Shown here: positions 235 through 20,237 of the stretch, piece after piece | Layout: every line of letters begins with the position of its first letter | Numbering within the stretch: position 1 is the first letter of the stretch | Source of the DNA: Candidatus Krumholzibacteriota bacterium | Lineage (GTDB): Bacteria; Krumholzibacteriota; Krumholzibacteriia; Krumholzibacteriales; Krumholzibacteriaceae | Assembly (NCBI GenBank): GCA_030667985.1 | Contig: DAOUUU010000011.1 | Location: 1-33,827, forward strand | DNA: 33,827 bases | Direction: 5' to 3' | Made by a program: the position numbers and the translations under genes | Notes under the pieces: model-generated | Seen by the model: the letters and a program-made list of their open reading frames with translations, nothing else | Told to the model about the DNA's origin: nothing | Database searches by the model: none

Positions 235-296
235 CGTGTCCGTAGTGCGCTCTAATGGGTTGGAATAGTCGCCGGGGCTATAGTATTATCAATATC

Positions 297-1163
297 ATGA
301 AGCGATACGAACGAATGAGGAAAACTGCCGGGATTATAACTCGTTCCGCTCTTGCGGCATGCGCCTGCCTTTTGATCTTCTCCTGCGGCTCGGTGAAGAA
401 TTACATGGATGCCGAAGGGCCGTCCCTCTGCGGTTCCTACTCGGAGCAATGTCCCGATCCGTGCGATACGATAAAAGTCGTATCATACAACATCAAGTTC
501 GGAGAGAGAATAGAGGAGGCGAGAGAGGAGATCCGCCGGCAGGAGGTGCTCCGCAATCCCGATATCGTGCTCCTCCAGGAGATGGATGGCGCAGGCGTCA
601 AGTCGATCGCCCGGGAGGGCAAATTCAATTTCGTCTATTTCCCAGCCTCACTACACGGGAAGCATGACAAGGATTTCGGGAACGCGATCCTCTCGCGCTG
701 GCCCATACGTGACGAGCAGAAGATAATCCTGCCGCACGAGCAACCGATCAGCAAGCAGTTGCGAATCGCCACGGCGGCCACAGTGGTGATCGATACGACC
801 AGTATCCGCGTTTACAGTGTCCACACCGAGACTTCGTGGCTCGGCATAGATGAGAGAATCGAACAGATGGACTCGATACTCGCGAGCGTCCCCGCCGAAT
901 TCGAACATGTAGTGATCGGCGGGGATTTCAATACCGTATCGGCTGGAACGATAAGACGTGTCGAGCGTCGATTCACAGATGCGGGTTTCACCCGCGCTTC
1001 GCGGGGTGTGGATTATACAGCGGCCGAAGGCCCATTCGGTCTTCTCGAGTTAGATCTCGATCATATATTCGTAAAGGGTTTCAGGGTCATGTCCGCGGGA
1101 ACGGGCGAAAAGACCGAGGTGAGCGATCACCTGCCCCTCTGGCTCATCCTATCCATGGAATGA
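297..1163 (+). CDS. Endonuclease/exonuclease/phosphatase (EEP) family lipoprotein
   Basis: Signal peptide with lipobox-like LLIFSC; EEP motifs VVSYNIKFG, DIVLLQEMD, GNAILSRWPI, VIGGDFNT, SDHLPLWL. ORF extends to 255; the ATG at 297 gives a better signal peptide. Confidence 0.85.
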   Translation: MKRYERMRKTAGIITRSALAACACLLIFSCGSVKNYMDAEGPSLCGSYSEQCPDPCDTIKVVSYNIKFGERIEEAREEIRRQEVLRNPDIVLLQEMDGAGVKSIAREGKFNFVYFPASLHGKHDKDFGNAILSRWPIRDEQKIILPHEQPISKQLRIATAATVVIDTTSIRVYSVHTETSWLGIDERIEQMDSILASVPAEFEHVVIGGDFNTVSAGTIRRVERRFTDAGFTRASRGVDYTAAEGPFGLLELDLDHIFVKGFRVMSAGTGEKTEVSDHLPLWLILSME

Positions 1164-1173
1164 TAGTGTGATA

Positions 1174-2463
1174 TCACCGCACACGGTCACGCTGGCGGAC
1201 CGGCTTCTCGTATGAACCGAGATGCACCTGGATCCGCGCAGAGGGTTGGCCCACGCCGAAGTCGATACGCGCGAGCCCCACGTAGGGGATGATGAAGCGG
1301 ATGCCAATGCCGTAACCGTCTATGAAATTCTTCCTGAAGTCCTCTTCCTGGCTCCAGGCGGTGCCGACATCGGCGAAAGCGGCTAGGTGCATACCGACAC
1401 GCAGGTTTATACCGAAATAGCTTATCAGTCTTGGTTCGATCAACATATATCGGTACTCGAGTGTGTTGATGAACTGGTTCTTGCCCGTTTTCGAACCAAG
1501 ATGCCAGCCGCGGATCGTATTGGTGCCGCCGAGGCTGTACTGCTGCCATGGGGCGATCGTCTCTCCGACCACACCGTCCGTCAGGGATGCTAGGGAGAAG
1601 AGCGCGATCGTATGACGATCAACGACATGAAAGAACCTTCTGATATCGATGTGTGTTCGCCAGAAATCGATATCTTCGCCGAATAGCCCCGCCTTCTCGA
1701 TCGCGATCTCGTTCCACCAGCCGGTGCTCGGGTTGGATGCGAGGTCGCGGCTGTCGTACCCGACGAAGAATCTGATCGTGGAAACATTGTCCTTGTTGTC
1801 CGGGGAGATCGTCCGCCCGGGCTCGTTGCTCTTGATTATCTCGTGCGAGAAGCGCCCCCCGATACGGCCATTCTGCCGTATGTAGCTCGAGAGGGTCAGG
1901 AAGAATTCGTCGGAGACCTCATCGAATTCGAAGAGCTCGTTTCTTCGGTCCCTGTGAAAGTACATGAATTCGTATCCGAAGTGATTGCCGATAACCCATG
2001 GATTCCTTAGCACCGCCTCGACGGTCGTGGCTCCTCCGAACCGAGCGACGCCGCTGAGATAGACGCCCTTCCCGAGAAAATTCACCGACTTGAGGCCTGC
2101 GCCGGCCGAGACGCCGTTCTCATCATCGATCGAGATGCTGACGACGGGGAGATAGCGGAGAGTCTCAGTGACCTCGATCATGAGTACGGTCTCGCCGTTC
2201 TCTTCTGTCGGATAGATCTTGACGTCACTGAAGACACCGAGCCGGTCGAGAGATTCCAGGTCCTTCTTTATCTTTTCGGGATCGAAGAACTCCCCGATCT
2301 CGGTGAGGAGCTCGCGCAGGATTATATTTTCCTTTGTGTTTTTTGCTCCGACGACCCTTATCTCGGAGACGGTTTTGCCTTCGAATTCTTCGTATCGTTC
2401 CTCTGCGGCGGGCGCCTCGGAAAATAATAGGAGCAGCAGGGAAAGAGCGGCGAAATATCTCAT
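1174..2463 (-). CDS. Compact Omp85/BamA-family outer membrane protein (apparently a single POTRA plus surface-antigen barrel)
   Basis: Signal peptide; POTRA-like KTVSEIRVVGAKNTKENIILRELL...LDRLGVFSDVKI; Omp85 loop-6-like GGTNTIRGW; C-terminal FADVGTAW...GYGIGIRFIIPYVGLARIDFGVG. Confidence 0.88.
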   Translation of the reverse strand: MRYFAALSLLLLLFSEAPAAEERYEEFEGKTVSEIRVVGAKNTKENIILRELLTEIGEFFDPEKIKKDLESLDRLGVFSDVKIYPTEENGETVLMIEVTETLRYLPVVSISIDDENGVSAGAGLKSVNFLGKGVYLSGVARFGGATTVEAVLRNPWVIGNHFGYEFMYFHRDRRNELFEFDEVSDEFFLTLSSYIRQNGRIGGRFSHEIIKSNEPGRTISPDNKDNVSTIRFFVGYDSRDLASNPSTGWWNEIAIEKAGLFGEDIDFWRTHIDIRRFFHVVDRHTIALFSLASLTDGVVGETIAPWQQYSLGGTNTIRGWHLGSKTGKNQFINTLEYRYMLIEPRLISYFGINLRVGMHLAAFADVGTAWSQEEDFRKNFIDGYGIGIRFIIPYVGLARIDFGVGQPSARIQVHLGSYEKPVRQRDRVR

Positions 2464-2487: not shown

Positions 2488-5400
2488 CTAAACGGCATTC
2501 TTGAGGTATCTCCCTACCTTGTACCAGAAGCCGCCGTACTCGGGCAGGAGCTCATTCAATTCCTCGATAGATTCGACCCAGGTTGTGACACCGAGTATAT
2601 TAACAAAATCGAGATATCCAACCGTGCTGTAGGTGTCCGAGACGACATACATCGTTTCCCCGTCCATGATCTTACCCCTGTAATCCATGTTATGGGAGCC
2701 CACGGTCAGGTAGAAGATCGTTTTCTCGTCCTCCTCGGGTGTGAGCGAGGCATCCCATTGCGAGGCGATTATTCGGACGTTGTCGAATGTCTGGGCTCGC
2801 AATCTCTTGGCATTGACATAGCTTTCGCTGGTGAGCTGTTCGCCCCGCGCAAGGAGGTAATCCTTGATGAGATCTGCCCAACCCTCGAGCGGAATGAGTG
2901 TAGAAACGGCTTCTCCTGAAATAAAGAGCTGGGATTTGAAGTGCAGTTTCGGTTTCCTATCTACAGCGTCCTCTGTGAGGAAGATGGGCTTGAATCCTTG
3001 CTGCTTCATGGATTCAGACACGGATCTCAGGGAGTCGAGAACAGACGGATGGAAGGGAAATACCGTCTTTAGCCAATCGTAACGATCGAAATTTTCGATG
3101 ATCTTGTCCACACGCGATATCTTGTCCGATACATCGATATCGAGATCGTATATGCCCACCTTGAGCATACCGCCCGCCGATTCTATCTCCTCCCTCAAGA
3201 CGTCCTGTATGATCACCAAACGGGCGAAGAGCTCGTTAGCCCTGGACATCTGCGGGACTCCGTCACTCGGGGCGTTTTCGAAAGCGGGAGTGATGGGGAA
3301 AACGCGGCATCCCCTGAATGCCGACCCCACGAGCATTCCCGCCCAGAGCGGGCTGTTCCAGAGTGAATCGGGGATGTAGAGTTGAGAGCCTTTGGGCATG
3401 AGTGTGTAGAGTATGCCTTTTGCGACATTCGAATCCTTCTGGCCGTATCCTGTCAGATTATGGACCTGCATGGCGGAAGCTCTCCACCCTTTAGCTTCGA
3501 GCTTGGAGATCATAGCCCCATAATTCGACGGCTTTGGGATCGACCGCAGGGGGGCGGGTATCTCATTCGCCTTGAACCCCTGGGAGAGCAGCAGTTCCCG
3601 TGCCTTGTCCTTGAGGCTCACGAGGGCGGGGCCCCGAACGAGGATCGCCCTGTCGTCCCATGTGGCTCCAGAGAAGTGTTCTCCTACGCCCATACCGGTA
3701 TAGATAGCTTCGCCCTTGCCCGGCTCGATCTCGGTCACATCGTGGAAGCTGATCTTCCGGTGGTCGATCATTACGATGTCGGGAACCCAGAAGAGGTATT
3801 TGAAGAGGTTGGCGCTCCTGAAGGTGAAATCCGGTGGGTTGGTCATATTGACGTGTACCTTGATCTTGTTCCGTAGCCATTTACTACCGTACGCTTCCAG
3901 TCCCGCCTGAAGCGCCTTAGATTCCTCGACCGCGGTGCGGAGCTCTGCCTGGGTTTTTCGTATAGTCTCCTCCCACTCGTCGAATTCGCCGGGGAGCTCG
4001 ACTTCATGATTCAACGGATCCTCGAGAAGCGCGAGCCAAAGCCTGCTATTGCTCAGAGTTGGATAGAGGGTGTCGAGAAACATCATGTAGACGGGAATCT
4101 TGCCCGTATCATCGTACGCCTTGACCCTATTGATCAGAGCCCTCATGTAAGCGCGAACCGTTATGCTGTATCCAATAAAATCGGGCTCGCCCTTCCCGTT
4201 CAGGCCGGCGAAGTCGTGTATCCAGAGAACGTGATAGTTCTCCGTCTCGAGTATCATACGAGCGAGCTCCCACTGAAACTGCTCGCCGATTATGTAGTGG
4301 ATGTCGTTTCCGCCTGTGAAATTCTCCTTCACTGCCTTCTCTATGATAGCGTCCATCTCGCTCTGCGTGTCGTGGTCCTCGAGCTGGAGGGCGTAGTGGA
4401 GTGGAATCCAGACGAGGCGCATGTCGTGCCAGCGATCCAGCAGCCTCTTTCTCTGGTCTTCCATCATCAGGATGATCCGGTGAAAGACATAGAGGGCTGC
4501 CTGGCGCTGGATCGGGGTTAACTCCCGATTCATCTCTGTCCAGCTCTGGAACTCGTGCTTCGCGTCGTTTGCGAATCCGAGCAGAGAGTCCCTCTTCTTG
4601 CGCTGACCGAGGGAGCGGTCGTAGGGCAGTATGATACGGTCGAGCAGGAGCTCACGCGCCTTATCGGTTATAAGTATTCCGTTATCCGGATTTCCGTTGG
4701 AATTTCCATATGCAGCGGCGATAGCAAAGGCTCTCTCGAGCTCTCGATGGTATGTCTCGATCACGCCCTCGAATGTCCGGCCCTTGGGAAAGTAGTCGTT
4801 TCTCTCGGCCATCAGCGACTTCATTTGATGCAGCTTTTCGATAAAGTGCTTCTCGCCCTCGGTACGCTTCTCGTCGAGGAATGGGGTTGTGAAAATGCTT
4901 ATCCAGGTCATTGCCTCTGAAATATTCGAAAGCGTGCCGGCGAGTTCCTCAGAAGGTTCGAATATCGATTCAGGTGCTCTGGATTTTCTCGAAGGGAGCA
5001 TCACATGATCCTTCTTCGCCCTCGTCTTTCCAGCGTAAGGTTGAGCGATCGGGATCTCGAAGCCAATATTGAAGGAGTGGCCGCGCCCCGGGAACCAGTC
5101 GATCCTGAGCTGTCCGCCCCGGTTGAATAGCCCCCCCCGCTGTAGAGGGAGTGCGAAGGAGAGGAGAAAATCGAACTCCTCGTTACGGAACGAGTAATCG
5201 GCCCCCATCTTGAGCATGAAGAAGCGGCTCTCCCCCATGAGGCGCAAGCCGCCGTCACCGATATTGTCGACCGTCTCGATATAGGCCTCGCCGACGATTC
5301 CGAGCGCGCCATATGTCGGGTTCATCAGGTCACGGTAGACTCCGAGATTGATCTCCGCTCCTATATTGCTCTGTTCCGATTGCCGGTCTGCGACCATAGC

Positions 5401-5559
5401 AAGGCTGAAATGGGGTTTCCAGACAGGGGGGAAGCTCATCGACTTGATATATTCACCCTGATCCGGGAGCATGGGATTCTGTGCTGGAGCAGGCGCCGAA
5501 AGCATGAGGAGCAAAACAACGATGAGAAGCGGGACAAATTGATCTATTACTCTGTTCAT
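2488..5559 (-). CDS. Exported 1023-aa protein with phospholipase-D superfamily motifs and a beta-strand-rich N-terminal region
   Basis: Signal peptide; DHRKISFHD fits H-x-K-x4-D followed by a GMGVGEHF...WDDRAILVRGPAL context typical of PLD; second degenerate site LHFKSQLFI plus GSHNMDYRG (G-S-x-N). N-terminal ~180 aa has alternating barrel-like strands. Confidence 0.72.
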   Translation of the reverse strand: MNRVIDQFVPLLIVVLLLMLSAPAPAQNPMLPDQGEYIKSMSFPPVWKPHFSLAMVADRQSEQSNIGAEINLGVYRDLMNPTYGALGIVGEAYIETVDNIGDGGLRLMGESRFFMLKMGADYSFRNEEFDFLLSFALPLQRGGLFNRGGQLRIDWFPGRGHSFNIGFEIPIAQPYAGKTRAKKDHVMLPSRKSRAPESIFEPSEELAGTLSNISEAMTWISIFTTPFLDEKRTEGEKHFIEKLHQMKSLMAERNDYFPKGRTFEGVIETYHRELERAFAIAAAYGNSNGNPDNGILITDKARELLLDRIILPYDRSLGQRKKRDSLLGFANDAKHEFQSWTEMNRELTPIQRQAALYVFHRIILMMEDQRKRLLDRWHDMRLVWIPLHYALQLEDHDTQSEMDAIIEKAVKENFTGGNDIHYIIGEQFQWELARMILETENYHVLWIHDFAGLNGKGEPDFIGYSITVRAYMRALINRVKAYDDTGKIPVYMMFLDTLYPTLSNSRLWLALLEDPLNHEVELPGEFDEWEETIRKTQAELRTAVEESKALQAGLEAYGSKWLRNKIKVHVNMTNPPDFTFRSANLFKYLFWVPDIVMIDHRKISFHDVTEIEPGKGEAIYTGMGVGEHFSGATWDDRAILVRGPALVSLKDKARELLLSQGFKANEIPAPLRSIPKPSNYGAMISKLEAKGWRASAMQVHNLTGYGQKDSNVAKGILYTLMPKGSQLYIPDSLWNSPLWAGMLVGSAFRGCRVFPITPAFENAPSDGVPQMSRANELFARLVIIQDVLREEIESAGGMLKVGIYDLDIDVSDKISRVDKIIENFDRYDWLKTVFPFHPSVLDSLRSVSESMKQQGFKPIFLTEDAVDRKPKLHFKSQLFISGEAVSTLIPLEGWADLIKDYLLARGEQLTSESYVNAKRLRAQTFDNVRIIASQWDASLTPEEDEKTIFYLTVGSHNMDYRGKIMDGETMYVVSDTYSTVGYLDFVNILGVTTWVESIEELNELLPEYGGFWYKVGRYLKNAV

Positions 5560-8479: not shown

Positions 8480-10795
8480 CTACCGCCGCCTGCTGCCGCT
8501 CGATTTCGGTCTCGTACTCCTCTGCCCGCTGCTCTTGGATCTTGTCTGACGCTGATAGTCATTAGAGCGCGTGTTGCCCCTCTGGCGGGCGTCGTGCTGA
8601 CGCTGCAAGTCGGATTGTTTCGGTTTTTGCGTCTGTGGTGTCGATTTGGGTCTCGTGTCTCTGGATTGATCGGCCGGTCTCGTCTGTTTCGAGCTGTCGG
8701 TCGGCCGCGTCTGTCTGGAGCTGTCAGTAGGCCGCGTTTCTCTCGAACGGTCTGTCGGCCTGGTTTCCCTCGAGCCGGAAGGCTTCTGGGCGGCTCGATC
8801 CGTTGATTTCCAGCCATCGTTTGTGCGCTGCTCCCAGCCCTTATCTGTCTTGCGGTGCACATTTCCGTTCCGGTCGGAATAGATGTTGTTCTCGCGCGTG
8901 CGTGGTTGAGCGGTGCCGGGTCTGGTCGCTCGATCTGCCGTGCTAACGCCCGGCGCTCTTGTCTTTGTCTTGCGGTCCATCGTGCTTACCGTGCCCGAGG
9001 GGTGTTTCCGGTAGACATTGTTGTAATGGGTCGGGCGCCTGGAAGCATGGTGTCCGGCATAGTAGCCGGCGCGCATTCCGTGATAGTACCCGTGGCGATA
9101 ACCGGCATGGTAGCCGGCCGGTCCCCACCAACCACCGTAACCTGGGTGACCGACTCTCACATGGAACCAGCCGCCGTATGTGAAGCCGACCGAGAAGCCC
9201 CAGCCGGTGTAGGGATTCCAGTGGACACCGAAGCCGTACGTCACCGGTCTCGGGTAGTAGTAATGTCCGTACCAGGGGTGATACCTGTAACCCGTTCCGT
9301 AAACGACCGTTCCATAGTAGGTATACGAGCAGACGTAGCCTGGCGTGTACCCCACGTACACGACACTTGGAGTGTAGCTGTATACATAGACGTAACGCAC
9401 ATTGTACACGGGCGAGCTGGGCGGGATTGTCTGAACCGCGGCCGGAACCTCCACGCAGACGGCCCAGGGTCCCACCGGAGCGGCCGAGACAAACCAGACC
9501 GCGTCGTTACAGCAGTAGTAGCTGTTATCTATCAGGAGGACCGACTTGTCCGTGTTGACGGCGTACTGGACCTCGGTCTCTTCTATCTTCTCGAATTTCG
9601 GATCGCCGTCGTACTCGATCTCTAGGGCCGCCTTTTCCCGGTCGACGGCCGCTGTCTGCGGAATCTCGTTTTCGAGCACAGCCTCGCGCGCCTCCTGGGT
9701 CTCGGGCACGCTGGCTAGAACCGATCCCTTCTCCGATTCGGGGGAGATGGTCTTGAACTCCTCGGGCAGCTCGCCGGGCGGCACGAATTCCCATGGGCCA
9801 TTGTCGAGTGATTTCGTCACGTACCAGCGGCCCGAGAGAAGGACGAAATGTCTTTGCGAAGAGATCTCCATGAAGACGTCGCTGTCCGTATTGTCCATAT
9901 AGAGCAGGCTCTCGGTGCCGGTGATCGGTTGATAGGAGGGAGTACCGTCGGCAGTGATCAATTCGGCCGGCTCTGTGCTTACTATGATCTCGGGAGGCGA
10001 GCCGGATCCGGTCTCCATTTCCTCTTCCTCTATATCATCCTGTTGCTCTACCATCTTCACTGCGATCTCGACGATCTCCTTGGGGGGCGACGCTGTATGT
10101 TTCCACTCATCTGATACTTTTCCCGCCGTATACCAGAATTCCCCGCCCTTCAGGTAAAAGCGCTTCGCCTTGGGATCCTGGATTACGAGAAAAGGCGTGT
10201 TCATGATATATTTATATTTCGTATTCTCGAGATCACGGATGACCGGCTCGCCGTCGACAAAAACGAGCACGGCGGGCTTGCTCCGGTAATGGATCTTGGG
10301 CGGATCGTTATTGAAATTGACCGCTGCCTTTTGTTCCCGCTCCACCGTCTCGAGACTTGCGATGAGGCGGTCGAGGGAGATGCTGTAATTCCATTTGGGT
10401 ATCTCGCGTTCGACTATCGCAGAGAACTCCTTGATCCAATCTTCCGATGCCTCGGGAAACTTCGCCGTTGAAACAGCGAGGTCGACGAGGTAGACCATCC
10501 TGTTTTCCAGATCAGTCCTCATACGGCAGGTGAACCAGACGGCGCCGAAGGCCGGCTCTTTCCTGTCCTTCAATGCGACCGATACCGCAGCCCGCGAGTT
10601 GAGTATGTTGTTCTCGAAGGATTCAGGCTGGGGCTGATAGATCGTTATCGTGCCCTGTGGGACAACGATGTCCCGAGGCCATGGTATGCCCTCCTCCCCT
10701 TCCTTTATCTCGATGGCAATGGTTTGAAAGGAAGTGGAGAGAACGATCAGAGTCATGGCGGTCACCATGAGCAGAGTCTTCTGTGTCAGATTCAT
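8480..10795 (-). CDS. Large exported Tyr/Gly-rich repeat protein with a basic Arg/Thr/Ser-rich tail
   Basis: Signal peptide (MNLTQKTLLMVTAMTLIVLSTSFQTIAIE); Y/G-rich VRYVYVYSYTPSVVYVGYTPGYVCSYTYYGTVVYGTGY...; C-terminal tandem S-R-[EQD]-T-R-P-[TAK]-[DS] repeats. ORF extends to 10828. Confidence 0.75.
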   Translation of the reverse strand: MNLTQKTLLMVTAMTLIVLSTSFQTIAIEIKEGEEGIPWPRDIVVPQGTITIYQPQPESFENNILNSRAAVSVALKDRKEPAFGAVWFTCRMRTDLENRMVYLVDLAVSTAKFPEASEDWIKEFSAIVEREIPKWNYSISLDRLIASLETVEREQKAAVNFNNDPPKIHYRSKPAVLVFVDGEPVIRDLENTKYKYIMNTPFLVIQDPKAKRFYLKGGEFWYTAGKVSDEWKHTASPPKEIVEIAVKMVEQQDDIEEEEMETGSGSPPEIIVSTEPAELITADGTPSYQPITGTESLLYMDNTDSDVFMEISSQRHFVLLSGRWYVTKSLDNGPWEFVPPGELPEEFKTISPESEKGSVLASVPETQEAREAVLENEIPQTAAVDREKAALEIEYDGDPKFEKIEETEVQYAVNTDKSVLLIDNSYYCCNDAVWFVSAAPVGPWAVCVEVPAAVQTIPPSSPVYNVRYVYVYSYTPSVVYVGYTPGYVCSYTYYGTVVYGTGYRYHPWYGHYYYPRPVTYGFGVHWNPYTGWGFSVGFTYGGWFHVRVGHPGYGGWWGPAGYHAGYRHGYYHGMRAGYYAGHHASRRPTHYNNVYRKHPSGTVSTMDRKTKTRAPGVSTADRATRPGTAQPRTRENNIYSDRNGNVHRKTDKGWEQRTNDGWKSTDRAAQKPSGSRETRPTDRSRETRPTDSSRQTRPTDSSKQTRPADQSRDTRPKSTPQTQKPKQSDLQRQHDARQRGNTRSNDYQRQTRSKSSGQRSTRPKSSGSRRR
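8648..8775 (-). repeat. In-gene tandem ~24-bp repeats encoding SRxTRPTD-like octapeptides (approximate bounds)
   Basis: Translated SRETRPTD-RSRETRPTD-SSRQTRPTD-SSKQTRPAD-QSRDTRPKS. Confidence 0.8.
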
Positions 10796-10979
10796 TACGG
10801 ATTCCCCCTTAAAGTTTAACCATCGCACGATCGGCGATGATGTTTAGATTATCCATATATAAAAGTTATTGCAAGCCAAGGCGGAATGTCAACATAATAG
10901 GCGCTGTCGGTCTGGTGAGGTTGTTCATTTGGAGCTCGCTTTTTATCGAAGTAATCCTGAACCCCGGGAGAGCATAGGT

Positions 10980-12374
10980 TTGAAAGCATTGCATATTTCG
11001 AATGTACTGGTTTCCGCTGTACGGCTTCCGCTGGTTGTTATCCTTCTCTGCTCTGCCGCATCATCGGTGGCGATAGCTCAGGACTCCCACTACTGGACGA
11101 ACCAGTACGGCACTATGGCCAATATGCTTGGTGGGGCTGTAGTAGGCAGCGTTCGCGATCCGAGCTCGGTCTACTACAATCCGGGTGCGATGGGGCTCGG
11201 TGAGGATTCGACGCTTGTAATAAGTACCGATGTGCTTCGGATCAGGGAACTGAGATACAGTGGGTGGGGAATAAGGGAGGAGGATCTGGTGTCGTTCACG
11301 GGAGGGTCGGCGCCGGGCATGTTTGCTATCAGGGTACCATTCCATGTGGCCGACGACCATCAGCTGGCGATATCCTATCTCAAGCGCCAGGATCTGAATG
11401 TGGAATTACAGGGTATTGTAGCGGATCGGATCGACGCCCTTCCCCCGGCCGGTGATGAGGACTTTTCTGCCGAGGCGCTTATGCGCCAGAACATGGGCGA
11501 GGACTGGTACGGCCTTACGTGGAGCTACAAGGTGAATGACCGCATGGCGGTGGGCGCCACCTGGAACGTCGCAGTCCGCAGCCAGCGAAATCGTTTTCAG
11601 ACGGTCGCGCAGCTTCTTGCGGAGGACGGTTCGCACAATGTGGCCAATGTCGTCTCCGATTACAACTTTTTCAATGTTCGGACGCTGTGGAAGCTCGGAG
11701 CCGCCATGGAGCGCGGACCGTGGGCGTTCGGCTTGGCCGTGACGACTCCTAGTCTCGATTTGTTCGGAACCGGGTCGGCCTACTACAACATCGGTTTTTT
11801 CGACAGTGAAACGGCGGAGAACAATACATTGATGGCTGATACGAAGAAGGATATGGGCGCGGACTACGAGTCGCCTTTATCGGTCGCGGCGGGGGTGTCA
11901 TACAGTTTTGGAAGCACGGGTTTGCATATCACCGCCGAGTGGTTCAACGAGGTCAAGGAGTTCGAGGTGATATCTCTCGAGGGCTTTGTCATAGATATTG
12001 GAGACCGGACTTTATACCCTTCTTTGGTTCATGGCCTGAATGAGGTTTTAAATGTAGGAATCGGGATCGATCATCGGTTCCATAGCGGAGTTTCGATCTA
12101 TGGCGGTTTTACAACCGATTATTCCGCTTTCAAGTCCGCTGAGGAATCTATGCTGTCGGTCACAAACTGGGATATCTATCACGCAACACTCGGCAGCTAT
12201 TTTTCTTTTTATCATATAGGCTTTACTCTGGGTTTCAGTTACTCGTTCGGTAACGGTGTCTTCGACAGAATCTCCGAATTTAGCGGGATCAGCAGCGGCG
12301 ATCTCGTCGGATCCTCCGAAGAGAAGGCTGTCGACTACAGGCAGCTCAAGTTCATCATCGGAATAGACTACTAG
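10980..12374 (+). CDS. FadL/OmpP1-like (or PorV-like) outer membrane protein
   Basis: TTG start at 10980 gives signal peptide LPLVVILLCSAASSVAIAQ; DPSSVYYNPGAMGLGEDSTLVIS, YGLTWSYKVNDRMAVGATWNVAVRSQ, LSVAAGVSYSF, and a barrel tail ending LKFIIGIDY. ORF extends to 10869. Confidence 0.75.
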   Translation: MKALHISNVLVSAVRLPLVVILLCSAASSVAIAQDSHYWTNQYGTMANMLGGAVVGSVRDPSSVYYNPGAMGLGEDSTLVISTDVLRIRELRYSGWGIREEDLVSFTGGSAPGMFAIRVPFHVADDHQLAISYLKRQDLNVELQGIVADRIDALPPAGDEDFSAEALMRQNMGEDWYGLTWSYKVNDRMAVGATWNVAVRSQRNRFQTVAQLLAEDGSHNVANVVSDYNFFNVRTLWKLGAAMERGPWAFGLAVTTPSLDLFGTGSAYYNIGFFDSETAENNTLMADTKKDMGADYESPLSVAAGVSYSFGSTGLHITAEWFNEVKEFEVISLEGFVIDIGDRTLYPSLVHGLNEVLNVGIGIDHRFHSGVSIYGGFTTDYSAFKSAEESMLSVTNWDIYHATLGSYFSFYHIGFTLGFSYSFGNGVFDRISEFSGISSGDLVGSSEEKAVDYRQLKFIIGIDY

Positions 12375-16245: not shown

Positions 16246-17556
16246 GTGTTCTGGAAAAAGCAGTGGCGGGCTTTTCTCATCATCCTCGCGGTCTTCCTGG
16301 CGAGTTACTATCTGCCGATCGAAGGCCTGCGGGGTGCAACCCGGTGGACGAGCGCCTTCTACGAAGCGCTCCACCTGCTGCGCTGGTACGCCCGCGAACA
16401 TGTGCTTCTCTGTCTCGTGCCCGCGTTTTTCATAGCGGGCGCAATAGGCGTCTTCGTCAGCCAGGCGTCGGTGATGAAGTACCTGGGCGTCAAGGCGAAC
16501 AAGGCGCTCGCCTATGGTGTCGCCTCCATCTCGGGAACGATCCTCGCCGTTTGCTCATGCACGGTGCTCCCGCTGTTCTCCGGCATCTACAAGCGTGGAG
16601 CGGGGCTGGGCCCTGCGACCGCCTTCCTATACTCGGGCCCCGCGATAAATGTGTTGGCTATCGTTCTAACGATGCGTGTGCTGGGTTTCGAGCTTGGAAT
16701 CGCCCGGGCGGTAGGCGCGATCCTGTTCAGCATCGTAATTGGTCTCCTCATGCATCTTTTCTTCCGAAAGGAAGAGATCGACAAGGCGAACTCGCAGACC
16801 GCGGTGCCGGAGCCGGAGGGATCGAGGCCACTCTGGAAGACCGCGCTCTATTTCGCCTCACTGGTCTTGATCCTCGTCTTCGCAAACTGGGGATACCCGA
16901 AACAGGAACAGGGATTATGGCACTCGATATATACGGCTAAATGGGTGCTGACGGGCATCTCTGCCATGTCACTAGCGGTGATGGTCGTCGTGTGGTTCGG
17001 CGCGAAGTGGCTGCATATGACACTGGCCGCTCTGCCCGCTGCTATCCTCGCTGTTTTGTTTCCGCAGACCCCGGCTCTGGCCTTTTCCGCAGGCGCGGTC
17101 GGTCTCTCCGTCCTGACGGTCCGCCGCGGAGGCGAGCTTGGCGAGTGGTTCGACTCGAGTTGGGGATTCGCGCGCCAGATACTGCCGCTGCTCCTTCTGG
17201 GTGTACTGATTGCCGGTGCTCTGCTCGGAAGGCCGGAATACGAGGGACTGATCCCTTCGGTCTGGGTGGCGCGCGCGGTAGGCGGCAACTCTATTGCCGC
17301 GAACCTGTTCGCTTCGATCGCGGGAGCTTTCATGTATTTTGCGACCTTGACCGAAGTGCCGATACTGCAGGGCCTGATCGGCGCCGGTATGGGCAAGGGC
17401 CCCGCCCTCGCACTGCTTCTCGCTGGCCCGGCTCTCTCGCTTCCCAACATGCTCGTCATCCGGAGCGTGATGGGAACCAGGAAGACGATCGTGTTCGTCC
17501 TGCTCGTCGTAGTGTTGGCGACCTTGAGCGGTATGATATATGGAGCGTTATTTTAG
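16246..17556 (+). CDS. Permease of the DUF318/UPF0718 (ArsP-like) family
   Basis: GTG start abuts arsR stop; CSCTVLPLFSGIYKRGAGLGPATAFLYSGPAINVLA and the second-half repeat LTEVPILQGLIGAGMGKGPALALLLAGPALSLPNML are diagnostic; many TM segments. Confidence 0.88.
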   Translation: MFWKKQWRAFLIILAVFLASYYLPIEGLRGATRWTSAFYEALHLLRWYAREHVLLCLVPAFFIAGAIGVFVSQASVMKYLGVKANKALAYGVASISGTILAVCSCTVLPLFSGIYKRGAGLGPATAFLYSGPAINVLAIVLTMRVLGFELGIARAVGAILFSIVIGLLMHLFFRKEEIDKANSQTAVPEPEGSRPLWKTALYFASLVLILVFANWGYPKQEQGLWHSIYTAKWVLTGISAMSLAVMVVVWFGAKWLHMTLAALPAAILAVLFPQTPALAFSAGAVGLSVLTVRRGGELGEWFDSSWGFARQILPLLLLGVLIAGALLGRPEYEGLIPSVWVARAVGGNSIAANLFASIAGAFMYFATLTEVPILQGLIGAGMGKGPALALLLAGPALSLPNMLVIRSVMGTRKTIVFVLLVVVLATLSGMIYGALF

Positions 17557-17570
17557 CTTGGAGGATCGAT

Positions 17571-17816
17571 ATGAAGAAGGTCCAGATACTCGGGACGGGC
17601 TGCGTGAAATGCAAAAAGCTCAGCGAGCAGGCCGAGCTGGCTATCGCGGAGCTCGGCGAGGGGTATGAGCTCGAGAAGATCAGTGATATAGAGGAGATAG
17701 TCGACTTCGGCGTCATGATCACCCCTGCCCTCGCCATCGATGGTGAAGTAAAGGCAGTCGGCAAGGTCCTTTCGAAGAATGAGATCGTAATACTACTCAG
17801 AGCGGAACAGGAGTGA
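17571..17816 (+). CDS. arsE: Small thioredoxin-like redox-active disulfide protein, ArsE-like
   Basis: 81 aa; MKKVQILGTGCVKCKKLSEQAELA with CxxC; MITPALAIDGEVKAVGKVLSKNEI; directly upstream of arsF- and arsG-like genes. Confidence 0.75.
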   Translation: MKKVQILGTGCVKCKKLSEQAELAIAELGEGYELEKISDIEEIVDFGVMITPALAIDGEVKAVGKVLSKNEIVILLRAEQE

Positions 17817-17820
17817 GAAG

Positions 17821-18360
17821 ATGCCGTTCAAACAGATCATAACAGTGATCCTGGTACTATTCGTCGTTGCGAGTGTAGTGTTTTTGATAATGAACACGGG
17901 CCGCGATGCCGGGCAGTCAGCGAATGAAGGAGCAGTAGCAGAATCTGATGAGGCGCCGGGCGTAGGGGAGGCTGAAGAGAAAGGTGGGCATGACCCGTCT
18001 GCCGGCATCTCCGGCCACAGCGTGGTTGCATATTACTTCTACGGCACCAAACGGTGCCCGACCTGTATAAAGATCGAGAAGTACGCGCGGGAATCGATCA
18101 CGGACGGTTTCCCGGAGCTCATCGAATCGGGCCGGCTCCAGTTTCGCGCGATCAACGTCGACGAGACGGAGAACGGACACTTTATAGACGACTACAAGCT
18201 CACAACAAAATCGGTTATAATATCCGACCGTCTGGACGGTAAGGAGACGAGATGGAAGAACCTCAATCTCGTCTGGGAGTACGTCGGCGAAAAGGATACA
18301 TTTATAGACTACGTGAGACGGGAGACGACGGCATACCTGGGGGAGCTCGAGCATGAATGA
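17821..18360 (+). CDS. arsF: ArsF-like protein (nitro-compound reductase subunit ArsF family)
   Basis: N-terminal TM; YYFYGTKRCPTCIKIEKYARE...FRAINVDETENGHFIDDYKLTTKSVIIS; CxxC in a thioredoxin-like fold; overlaps the next gene. Confidence 0.8.
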   Translation: MPFKQIITVILVLFVVASVVFLIMNTGRDAGQSANEGAVAESDEAPGVGEAEEKGGHDPSAGISGHSVVAYYFYGTKRCPTCIKIEKYARESITDGFPELIESGRLQFRAINVDETENGHFIDDYKLTTKSVIISDRLDGKETRWKNLNLVWEYVGEKDTFIDYVRRETTAYLGELEHE

Positions 18361-19042
18361 ACTATTCGCCGGTATCGGCACAGCTCTCTGGCTTGGTATA
18401 CTAACGTCGATAAGCCCGTGCCCTCTCGCTACGAACATTGCAGCGATATCATATATAGGAAAGCGAGTCGACAGGCCCGGGCAGGTGCTTGCAACAGGAC
18501 TTCTCTATACCCTCGGGAGAACGGTTGCGTATCTGGTTCTCGGCATCGTCCTCGTTACGAGCCTGCTCTCTGCGCCCCATCTTTCCCACTGGCTGCAGAA
18601 GTATATGATGAAGATACTGGGGCCGCTCCTTATCCTGGTCGGGATGGTCCTGCTCGGGCTCATTGGGCAGGGATTGACCGGCATCGGCGCCGGCGAGAGT
18701 ATCAGAAGACGCGCCGAGCGGATGGGTCTCTGGGGAGCGGGGCTCCTGGGATTCGTCTTCGCGCTCTCTTTCTGTCCCGTCTCCGCGGCGATCTTCTTCG
18801 GCAGCCTTCTGCCGCTCGCCGTCAGCGCGCAGTCGGCGGTTCTCTATCCATCGCTCTACGGCGTCGGCACAGCCCTTCCCGTGGTGCTCTTTTCTGTCAT
18901 CATAGCCTCGAGCGCCTATTCGGTCGGTAGGACCTTTGACAGGGTGATCCAGTTCGAGATATGGGCCCGCCGCATCACAGGCATTCTATTCATAGGCATC
19001 GGGATATATTTCTCGATAAAGTACATCTTTCACATCTTCTGA
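18353..19042 (+). CDS. arsG: ArsG-like efflux permease (DsbD/CcdA-like membrane protein)
   Basis: Starts inside arsF (ATGAATGA overlap); LTSISPCPLATNIAAISYIGKRVDRPGQVLATGLLYTLGRTVAYLVLGIVL; GFVFALSFCPVSAAIFFGSLLPLA. Confidence 0.8.
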   Translation: MNELFAGIGTALWLGILTSISPCPLATNIAAISYIGKRVDRPGQVLATGLLYTLGRTVAYLVLGIVLVTSLLSAPHLSHWLQKYMMKILGPLLILVGMVLLGLIGQGLTGIGAGESIRRRAERMGLWGAGLLGFVFALSFCPVSAAIFFGSLLPLAVSAQSAVLYPSLYGVGTALPVVLFSVIIASSAYSVGRTFDRVIQFEIWARRITGILFIGIGIYFSIKYIFHIF

Positions 19043-19081
19043 TCCGGAAACCCGGGAGATCGAAGATGGAGTCTTTCGATC

Positions 19082-19160
19082 ATGGCCGTCAGTGTTCTGA
19101 TCGAAGTTCCGGTAATGCTGATGCTGGTAGCAATATGCAGACGTTACTGCTATATATTCA
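19082..19160 (+). pseudogene. Possible C-terminal remnant of an ACR3-family arsenite transporter
   Basis: MAVSVLIEVPVMLMLVAICRRYCYIF resembles the ACR3 terminal helix (VGVLIEVPVML.LV); no upstream ACR3 body, since ArsG ends at 19042 in the same frame. Confidence 0.5.
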
Positions 19161-19229
19161 AGGAGTGCAAACTCGGCCTGCGCCAGTGTGCGCAGGCGGC
19201 GTTCGGAACGGAGGAACAGGTTTACCGTA

Positions 19230-20237
19230 ATGATCTACCCCATCGATGCAGTCATAGCCGTTACGTACAGATGCCAGTCGCGTTGCCGGATGTGCTCGAT
19301 ATGGCAGATCAACGAACACGATGATGTCTCTCCCGGCGTCTACGATAAACTCCCAACGACCCTGAAGGACGTCAACCTCTCCGGCGGCGAGCCTTTCCTG
19401 CGAAAGGATCTCGCCGAGATCGTCCGCGTCGTACACGACCGGGTTCCCAAGGCGCGGATCATCGTGTCGACCAACGCCCTTATGGGAGATGCGCTCGTGC
19501 CCCGGGCTCTAGAGCTCGTCAAGATCGATCCCGGGATCGGGTTCGGCATCTCGATCGACGGCATAGGGGAGATGCAGGATTTCATCAGGGGAGTGAAGGG
19601 AGCTTACGAGAACGCCCTCGCCGCTGCGAAAGGACTCAAATCGGAAGGGGTGGACAACATCCGTCTCGCCTTTACTCTTACGCGCGAGAACGCAGATCAC
19701 ATGATCAAGGTCTACGAGCTTTCCCAAAAGCTCGGCGTCCAGTTCACGATGTCGATGGCCCACGACAGCGATTTCTTCTTCGGGAGCCATGACTCGGCGA
19801 TAGTGAAGGATGAGGGATCGCTCTTCGATGATGAAACGCTGCGGCGCGACCTCGAGCGCATCATCAGGAGCGAGCTCGCCACCAGTGCCCTCAAGAGCTG
19901 GGGAAAGGCCTTCATATACCACGGTATGTACCGGGTCATGACAGAAGGCAAGAGGCCTTTCGGTAACCGGCCCGGCGTTGATTTCTTCTACCTCGACCCG
20001 AAGGGGGACATCTACCCTTCGGTCGTTCATAACTTCGTGATGGGGAGCATTGCCGGGGATGACTTCGAATCGGTCTGGAGCTCGGAACAGAGCGACGATA
20101 TACGAAAGAGATGCGCGGCGGACGAGAGGCCCTACTGGATGGGCTGCATGCTCCGCAGGGCTCTCCTGGACCACAGGTTCCAGATCGGCATCTGGGCGCT
20201 TCACCACAAGTTTTTGGGGCTACGGCTCGAGCGGTGA
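19230..20237 (+). CDS. Radical SAM protein
   Basis: AVTYRCQSRCRMCSIW (CxxxCxxC at ~19272-19295), DVNLSGGEPFLRKDLAEIV, GFGISIDGIGEMQDFIRG. ORF extends to 19188; ATG at 19230 is favoured. Confidence 0.88.
   Translation: MIYPIDAVIAVTYRCQSRCRMCSIWQINEHDDVSPGVYDKLPTTLKDVNLSGGEPFLRKDLAEIVRVVHDRVPKARIIVSTNALMGDALVPRALELVKIDPGIGFGISIDGIGEMQDFIRGVKGAYENALAAAKGLKSEGVDNIRLAFTLTRENADHMIKVYELSQKLGVQFTMSMAHDSDFFFGSHDSAIVKDEGSLFDDETLRRDLERIIRSELATSALKSWGKAFIYHGMYRVMTEGKRPFGNRPGVDFFYLDPKGDIYPSVVHNFVMGSIAGDDFESVWSSEQSDDIRKRCAADERPYWMGCMLRRALLDHRFQIGIWALHHKFLGLRLER

What the first reader, a model, noticed from the sequence alone, without database searches (positions are those of the whole stretch)
2488..5559. 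Large exported PLD-superfamily protein with a barrel-like N-terminus
DHRKISFHD (3748-3765 region, minus strand) fits H-x-K-x4-D exactly. A second site is split and degenerate: HFK (2935-2943) lacks the Asp, and GSHN (2689-2700) follows ~90 residues later. The N-terminal ~180 aa reads as outer-membrane-like beta strands (GAEINLGVYRDL, GLRLMGESRFFMLKMGADYSF, GQLRIDWFPGRGHSFNIGFEIPI) and is followed by a long helical region. PLD enzymes joined to putative barrel segments are unusual to my knowledge; possible roles are outer-membrane lipid remodelling or a surface-exposed phospholipase.
Basis: partly seen in the sequence, partly recalled or inferred. Interest (0 to 1): 0.7.

Follow-up and report, generated by a model that had tools for sequence, protein, structure and literature searches.

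The report
Phospholipase D fused to outer-membrane barrel
This bacterial gene encodes an exported enzyme of the phospholipase D family that appears to carry its own eight-stranded outer-membrane barrel as an anchor, which would place a lipid-rebuilding enzyme directly at the outer membrane; no such combination turned up in the paper library or the protein-family libraries searched.

Summary
ORF 2488-5559(-) encodes a 1023-aa exported protein that no Pfam or NCBIfam model recognises. I found about 40 distinct homologues (30-52% identity) in Krumholzibacteriota (the window's phylum), Gemmatimonadota and other MAG lineages. All catalytic residues of a two-lobed PLD enzyme are invariant: H600, K602, D607; H873, K875; N957, E968. 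The second lobe never has the HKD Asp, and always has 78-87 residues between HxK and GSxN, a conserved insertion rather than decay. AlphaFold2 on 41 sequences gives pLDDT 91.5 and pTM 0.91. Foldseek matches the C-terminal part to phosphatidylserine synthase, PLD1/2 and Moritella PLD (prob 1.00), and the N-terminal 8-stranded domain to transmembrane beta-barrels. Strand alternation supports a membrane barrel: one face has 3% polar residues, the other 39%.

Best reading: an OmpA-like layout, with a barrel anchor and a PLD enzyme in the periplasm at the outer membrane's inner leaflet, remodelling phospholipids. A one-POTRA Omp85 gene follows 24 bp downstream, recurs beside homologues in several lineages, and co-occurs with the PLD across genomes (p=1e-5). 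Chemistry and topology are inferred, not shown. The surface-exposed version is less likely. New variant of a known kind.

The parts
2488..5559 (-). Barrel-PLD gene, 1023 aa exported protein
   Evidence: ORF; about 40 distinct homologues with conserved frame and length; AF2 pLDDT 91.5, pTM 0.91
5479..5559 (-). Sec-type signal peptide, about residues 1-27, no Cys (not a lipoprotein)
   Evidence: Read from sequence: positively charged start, hydrophobic core, APAPAQ; helix 2-20 then low pLDDT 21-30 in the model
5050..5421 (-). 8-stranded beta-barrel domain, strands within residues 47-170
   Evidence: Eight strands in both models; Foldseek to OmpX/PagP/OmpW/Ail, a designed transmembrane barrel and phage-encoded OM barrels; face alternation 3% vs 39% polar
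5047..5064 (-). Internal beta-signal-like motif G-x-x-phi-x-phi at the end of strand 8 (residues 166-171)
   Evidence: 28 of 37 homologues match G..[FILVMWY].[FILVMWY] here
4330..4950 (-). Helical region between barrel and PLD domain, residues 204-410
   Evidence: Secondary structure of the AF2 model
3580..4317 (-). PLD lobe 1, about residues 415-660
   Evidence: Foldseek alignment to PssA and PLD1/2 and model secondary structure; lobe limits approximate
3739..3765 (-). HKD motif 1, DHRKISFHD (residues 599-607), H-x-K-x4-D
   Evidence: D599, H600, K602, D607 invariant in all 41 sequences
2515..3492 (-). PLD lobe 2, about residues 690-1015
   Evidence: Foldseek and model; lobe limits approximate
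2935..2943 (-). Second-lobe HxK (residues 873-875), no following Asp
   Evidence: H873 and K875 invariant in 40/40; residue 880 never Asp
2716..2916 (-). Helical insertion between HxK and GSxN, about residues 882-948
   Evidence: HxK-to-GSxN distance 78-87 residues in all 39 homologues that span it; helices 882-888, 894-910, 917-938, 941-946 in the model
2656..2700 (-). GSHN and following R961, D966-G-E968 (residues 954-968)
   Evidence: G954, N957, R961, D966, E968 invariant in 39/39; S955 in 37 and T in 2
1174..2463 (-). Omp85-superfamily protein with one POTRA, 429 aa, 24 bp downstream of the PLD stop
   Evidence: Pfam Omp85 1.5e-25 and POTRA 2.9e-10; adjacency in homologous loci; co-occurrence p=1e-5
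255..1163 (+). Putative lipoprotein of the endonuclease/exonuclease/phosphatase family, convergent with the Omp85 gene; tentative associate
   Evidence: Pfam 5.9e-16; lipobox-like LIFSC; same convergent place in L026 and directly upstream of the PLD in L046; co-occurrence p=1e-4
10869..12374 (+). Exported, probably outer-membrane protein, FadL-like N-terminus; tentative associate
   Evidence: No Pfam/NCBIfam hit; weak PDB match to an outer-membrane protein, 3dwo, E=0.17; homologue abuts the PLD in L039 and the Omp85 homologue in L128; in 15 of 17 PLD genomes versus 5 of 61 others

Best explanation
The protein is exported by Sec and inserted in the outer membrane through its N-terminal 8-stranded beta-barrel. 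The rest of the chain (a helical region and a two-lobed PLD-superfamily enzyme) stays in the periplasm against the inner leaflet of the outer membrane, the layout of OmpA with an enzyme in place of the peptidoglycan-binding domain. H600 and H873, with K602/D607, K875 and N957/E968, form one active site. It works on the phosphodiester of phospholipids through a phosphohistidine intermediate, either hydrolysing the head group or transferring the phosphatidyl group to another alcohol (head-group exchange or cardiolipin formation). The net role is remodelling of outer-membrane phospholipids, probably together with the adjacent one-POTRA Omp85. Shown by computation: homology, fold, invariant catalytic residues, barrel-like alternation, Omp85 linkage and co-occurrence. 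Inferred: outer-membrane location, periplasmic orientation, lipid substrate, and any cooperation with Omp85.
For: Catalytic residues are invariant in all homologues. Model confidence is pLDDT 91.5, pTM 0.91. All 49 PDB matches at E<=0.001 are PLD superfamily, led by phosphatidylserine synthase (TM up to 0.61 on the target), then PLD1/2, Moritella PLD and plant PLD alpha. The barrel fold matches OmpX, PagP, OmpW, Ail, a designed transmembrane barrel and phage OM barrels. The outward-type face carries 3% D/E/K/R/H/N/Q against 39% on the other; the hydropathy contrast of 3.29 was never reached in 2000 shuffles, maximum 2.36. An internal beta-signal-like motif is present in 28/37. The Omp85 gene is adjacent in the window, in the second copy in the same genome (L027), and in L026, L055, L033, L022, L060, L036 and L040, scattered over the tree. 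Co-occurrence with the Omp85 across 78 genomes has p=1e-5 and by genus p=0.0017, often on different contigs. Precedents: a PLD-type cardiolipin synthase, ClsO, acts at the outer membrane (PMC12846801), and the patatin phospholipase domain of PlpD is held in the periplasm by an outer-membrane barrel (PMC11116518).
Against: No experiment. The PLD superfamily also contains nucleases, and PLD3/PLD4 are among the structural matches. The proposed extracellular loops are short (2-6 residues) and the strand 6-7 turn is longer and highly conserved (RGG-x-F-x-R-G), the reverse of the usual outer-membrane pattern. The polar face is only weakly more conserved than the hydrophobic one (p=0.086). Most homologues do not have Omp85 next door. 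Co-occurrence is not specific to lipid genes: an unrelated exported protein (8480-10828) co-occurs about as strongly (p=7e-8), so shared lifestyle could explain part of it.
Confidence: 0.6

Rival explanations
1. The enzyme is surface-exposed: the PLD domain is carried through or around the membrane (with help of the Omp85 partner) and acts on the outer leaflet or on external lipids.
For: An Omp85-family gene is linked; ClsO shows that a PLD-type enzyme can sit on the cell surface (PMC12846801).
Against: Both ends of an even-stranded outer-membrane barrel face the periplasm. Type Vd PlpD was first thought to be secreted and was then shown to stay periplasmic (PMC11116518).
Confidence: 0.15
2. 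It is a periplasmic, outer-membrane-tethered nuclease that degrades incoming nucleic acid.
For: PLD3/PLD4 nucleases are among the structural matches; an endonuclease/exonuclease/phosphatase-family lipoprotein is encoded nearby and next to two further homologues.
Against: The best structural matches are phospholipid enzymes; the GSxNMDYRSMxMDGE stretch reads like the phospholipid-acting PLD1/2 motif, and PLD1 is the only PLD that the sequence profile picks up in the PDB, at E about 0.8, which is not significant.
Confidence: 0.12
3. The N-terminal domain is a soluble 8-stranded barrel (lipocalin-like), and the protein is a soluble or peripheral periplasmic PLD.
Against: With the better model, transmembrane barrels are the best non-PLD matches. 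One face is almost free of polar residues across 41 sequences while the other holds invariant or near-invariant E91, R106, G119 and D121, which fits a packed polar interior.
Confidence: 0.1
4. It is a catalytically inactive scaffold because the second HKD motif lacks its Asp.
For: Residue 880 is never Asp; GSxN is displaced by about 65 residues relative to the usual spacing (usual spacing from general knowledge).
Against: All His, Lys, Asn and Glu positions expected of the active site are invariant, which would not last in a dead enzyme. The putative cardiolipin synthase ClsD of Acinetobacter also lacks the second Asp (PMC12846801).
Confidence: 0.05

Closest known systems
PLD-superfamily phospholipid enzymes (phosphatidylserine synthase PssA, PLD1/2, Moritella PLD)
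   Same: Two-lobed fold, H-x-K in both lobes, GSxN with the following R and E; Foldseek prob 1.00.
   Different: Exported, carries a beta-barrel and a helical region, lacks the second Asp, has about 80 residues between HxK and GSxN of lobe 2, and is not recognised by Pfam (weak PLDc_2 in 12 of 41 members, best E 0.014).
ClsO, outer-membrane lipoprotein cardiolipin synthase (PMC12846801)
   Same: PLD-type enzyme at the outer membrane.
   Different: ClsO is a lipid-anchored surface lipoprotein close to ClsC; this protein has no lipobox Cys and uses its own barrel, and is not a PLDc_2 family match.
PlpD / type Vd patatin-Omp85 (PMC11116518)
   Same: Phospholipase-type domain covalently joined to an outer-membrane barrel; an Omp85-superfamily protein is involved.
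   Different: PLD fold instead of patatin; 8-stranded barrel at the N-terminus instead of an Omp85 barrel at the C-terminus; the Omp85 is a separate gene.
OmpA
   Same: 8-stranded N-terminal barrel followed by a soluble C-terminal part.
   Different: The C-terminal part is a PLD enzyme, not a peptidoglycan-binding domain; no detectable sequence similarity.

Membership tests
PLD superfamily | Two-lobed PLD fold | tested here: met
   Foldseek, 49 PDB matches at E<=0.001, all PLD superfamily
PLD superfamily | H-x-K-x4-D motif in lobe 1 | tested here: met
   Invariant in 41/41
PLD superfamily | H-x-K-x4-D motif in lobe 2 | tested here: inconclusive
   H-x-K invariant, Asp absent in all; some superfamily members lack it
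PLD superfamily | GSxN strand with downstream R and E | tested here: met
   Invariant in 39 (S/T at one position), but displaced by an insertion
PLD superfamily | Significant match to a PLD profile (PLDc_2, PF13091) | tested here: not met
   Window protein none; 12 of 41 homologues weak, best E 0.014. Fold and motifs carry the assignment, not the profile; a profile match is a detection aid rather than a defining feature
PLD superfamily | Phosphodiesterase or phosphatidyltransferase activity via phosphohistidine | not testable with these tools
   Needs purified protein
Outer-membrane beta-barrel protein | Even number of antiparallel strands closing a barrel with hydrophobic outer face | tested here: met
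   8 strands; face alternation; Foldseek to OM barrels. Direction of the faces inferred
Outer-membrane beta-barrel protein | Sec signal and beta-signal | tested here: met
   Signal peptide read from sequence; motif in 28/37
Outer-membrane beta-barrel protein | Location in the outer membrane | not testable with these tools
   Needs fractionation
ClsO | Lipoprotein signal with lipobox Cys | tested here: not met
   No Cys in the first 40 residues
ClsO | PLDc_2-type cardiolipin synthase sequence | tested here: not met
   no PLDc_2 match in the whole genome
Type Vd (PlpD) | Patatin domain fused to POTRA plus 16-stranded barrel | tested here: not met
   No patatin match and a different barrel
OmpA | C-terminal OmpA peptidoglycan-binding domain | tested here: not met
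   No Pfam match; PLD fold instead

The most novel reading that the evidence does not exclude
A previously undescribed class of integral outer-membrane transphosphatidylases: barrel-anchored PLD enzymes that make or exchange phospholipids (for example cardiolipin) in the outer membrane itself, working with a dedicated one-POTRA Omp85, in diderm lineages far from Proteobacteria. In the window's order they would be the only PLD-type lipid enzymes left.
Probability: 0.3. Interest if true: 0.82.

Novelty: new variant of a known kind. Interest (0 to 1): 0.63.

Why it matters
Phospholipid synthesis was long placed only at the inner membrane; in 2026 ClsO showed that a PLD-type enzyme can make cardiolipin at the outer membrane (PMC12846801). 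A second, structurally different way of fixing a PLD enzyme in the outer membrane, in Krumholzibacteriota, Gemmatimonadota and others, would say that outer-membrane lipid remodelling is broader and arose more than once. It also gives the linked one-POTRA Omp85 a possible job. The family has no Pfam or NCBIfam name.

Tried and rejected
Pfam and NCBIfam on the protein gave nothing. phmmer and profile searches of the PDB gave only chance-level hits, with PLD1 at E about 0.8. Plasmid records gave no match. The first genome-contig scan with a single sequence found nothing, but the alignment found 42 loci. hhalign against phylum PLDc_2 proteins aligned only the GSxN region, probability 9.8, so sequence profiles alone do not prove PLD homology; fold and invariant residues do. 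The first AF2 model with 15 sequences was poor at the active site (pLDDT 77.5) and was replaced by the 41-sequence model. I considered that PLD-Omp85 adjacency might come from close relatives; the label needs 6 changes on the tree (shuffled mean 6.3), so it is not one clade, but the tree cannot tell repeated gain from repeated loss. Gene 8480-10828 was chosen as a co-occurrence control and turned out to co-occur as well; the radical-SAM gene 19188-20237 did not (p=0.34). I therefore weigh co-occurrence lightly. The EEP and FadL-like genes are left as tentative associates.

Full report
OBSERVATION. The ORF at 2488-5559 on the minus strand is real: 1023 aa with a signal peptide and no Cys in the first 40 residues. 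DHRKISFHD is residues 599-607 (3765-3739), HFK is 873-875 (2943-2935), GSHN is 954-957 (2700-2689). Pfam and NCBIfam give no family for it.

HOMOLOGUES. Searching genomes of the same phylum gave 17 of 80 genomes with matches, including a second copy in the window's own genome at 40% identity. An alignment-based scan of named genomes gave 42 loci, titled Krumholzibacteriota, Gemmatimonadota, Zixiibacteriota, Aminicenantes, Eisenbacteria and a Deltaproteobacterium (MAG titles may be wrong). The contig of genome G017, in the same family as the window, has the same length as a record named Krumholzibacteriota (19331 bases), so the window is from that phylum. The alignment of 41 members has H600, K602, D607, H873, K875, N957, R961, D966 and E968 invariant wherever present. 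The sequence after the second motif, GSxNMDYRSMxMDGE, follows the general PLD pattern GSxNxxxRS...xxE. The Asp of the second HKD is absent in all, and GSxN follows HxK by 78-87 residues in all 39 members that span it, whereas in ordinary PLDs the distance is about 15 (general knowledge). This is a conserved insertion.

STRUCTURE. AlphaFold2 with 41 sequences: mean pLDDT 91.5, pTM 0.91. Residues 47-170 form eight strands, 204-410 helices, and about 415-1015 the PLD domain. Foldseek against the PDB: 49 matches at E<=0.001, all PLD superfamily, best Haemophilus and E. coli phosphatidylserine synthase (E 3.5e-8), then PLD1/2, Moritella PLD, plant PLD alpha, PLD3/4. The next match is a designed transmembrane beta-barrel (prob 1.00, E 0.01).

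IS THE BARREL A MEMBRANE BARREL? In each of the eight strands, residues of one parity are hydrophobic and of the other polar. Over 41 sequences the hydrophobic face has 3% D/E/K/R/H/N/Q and the other 39%; the hydropathy contrast of 3.29 was never reached in 2000 within-strand shuffles (maximum 2.36). The polar face carries invariant or near-invariant E91, R106, G119 and D121, as expected of a packed barrel interior; overall the polar face is only weakly more conserved (p=0.086). Strand 8 ends in a G-x-x-phi-x-phi motif in 28 of 37, like the internal beta-signal expected when a domain follows the barrel. Against: the turns that would be extracellular are short and the strand 6-7 turn (RGG-x-F-x-R-G) is the longer, conserved one.

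NEIGHBOURHOOD. The next gene, 24 bp downstream on the same strand, encodes an Omp85-superfamily protein with one POTRA. The same pairing is found for the second copy in this genome (4 bp gap), and in L026, L055, L033 (convergent), L022, L060, L036 and L040. These are spread over the tree. The window genome has 12 Omp85 matches in 2.5 Mb, so two of two copies having one next door is unlikely by chance. Across 78 genomes, close homologues of this Omp85 occur in 10 of 17 PLD genomes and 4 of 61 others (p=1e-5; by genus p=0.0017), often on another contig. One relative (G006) keeps the Omp85 but has only terminal pieces of the PLD gene, so the Omp85 can persist without it. A FadL-like exported protein (10869-12374) co-occurs in 15 of 17 versus 5 of 61, and its homologue abuts the PLD in one genome and the Omp85 homologue in another. 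An EEP-family lipoprotein (255-1163) co-occurs more weakly. But gene 8480-10828, picked as a control, co-occurs too (13 of 17 versus 5 of 61), while a radical-SAM gene does not. Co-occurrence may therefore partly reflect a shared envelope type or lifestyle.

OTHER PLD ENZYMES. The window's genome has no PLDc_2 protein at all, and none of the 25 genomes of its order has one, whereas 45 of 53 other genomes of the phylum do. CDP-alcohol phosphatidyltransferases are present, four copies, so another type of cardiolipin synthase is possible.

MECHANISM. Shown by computation: PLD fold, a complete set of catalytic residues except one Asp, barrel-like N-terminus, Omp85 association. Inferred: outer-membrane insertion; periplasmic placement of the enzyme (both ends of an even-stranded barrel face the periplasm, general knowledge); phospholipid substrate (best structural matches are phospholipid enzymes); remodelling role. 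Whether the chemistry is hydrolysis or transfer is open.

COMPARISON. Literature searches found no PLD enzyme fused to an outer-membrane barrel (the library lacks most subscription journals). The nearest precedents are ClsO, a PLD-type surface lipoprotein that makes cardiolipin in the outer membrane (PMC12846801), and PlpD, a patatin phospholipase whose domain is held in the periplasm by an Omp85 barrel (PMC11116518). The present protein is neither: no lipobox, no PLDc_2 profile match, no patatin, a different barrel. It is a member of the PLD superfamily by fold and motif, with an anchor not described in anything found by these searches: a new variant of a known kind.

Noticed in passing
L011 (genome G006, contig C24): A relative in which the barrel-PLD gene is reduced to N- and C-terminal pieces while the adjacent Omp85 gene remains intact (gene decay, or an assembly effect).
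   Followed up: partly
Genomes G000-G024 (window's order): No PLDc_2 protein in any of 25 genomes of the order, while most other genomes of the phylum have them.
   Followed up: partly
window 8480-10828 (-): 782-aa exported protein without Pfam or NCBIfam match; co-occurs with the barrel-PLD in 13 of 17 genomes and sits in a cluster with OMP and DUF4136 genes in L160.
   Followed up: partly
window 10869-12374 (+): FadL-like exported protein with no family match, found in 15 of 17 barrel-PLD genomes and adjacent to the PLD or the Omp85 gene in two genomes.
   Followed up: partly
window 1174-2463 (-), C-terminus: The Omp85 ends in a basic tail (RQRDRVR) beyond the last barrel strand; similar tails (RQRERVR, RRQKVR, RAKKIR) occur in L026, L027 and L055.
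   Followed up: no
L095-L097 (alignment A3): PLDc_2 proteins of other genomes in the phylum begin with a lipobox-like LLG-x-ASC, possibly ClsO-like lipoproteins.
   Followed up: no
L036 10580-12772 (-): 730-aa protein with a ShlB/Omp85-type C-terminus directly upstream of a barrel-PLD gene.
   Followed up: no
window 16941-20237 (+): Thioredoxin-domain protein, DsbD-like membrane protein and radical-SAM/SPASM protein in a row.
   Followed up: no
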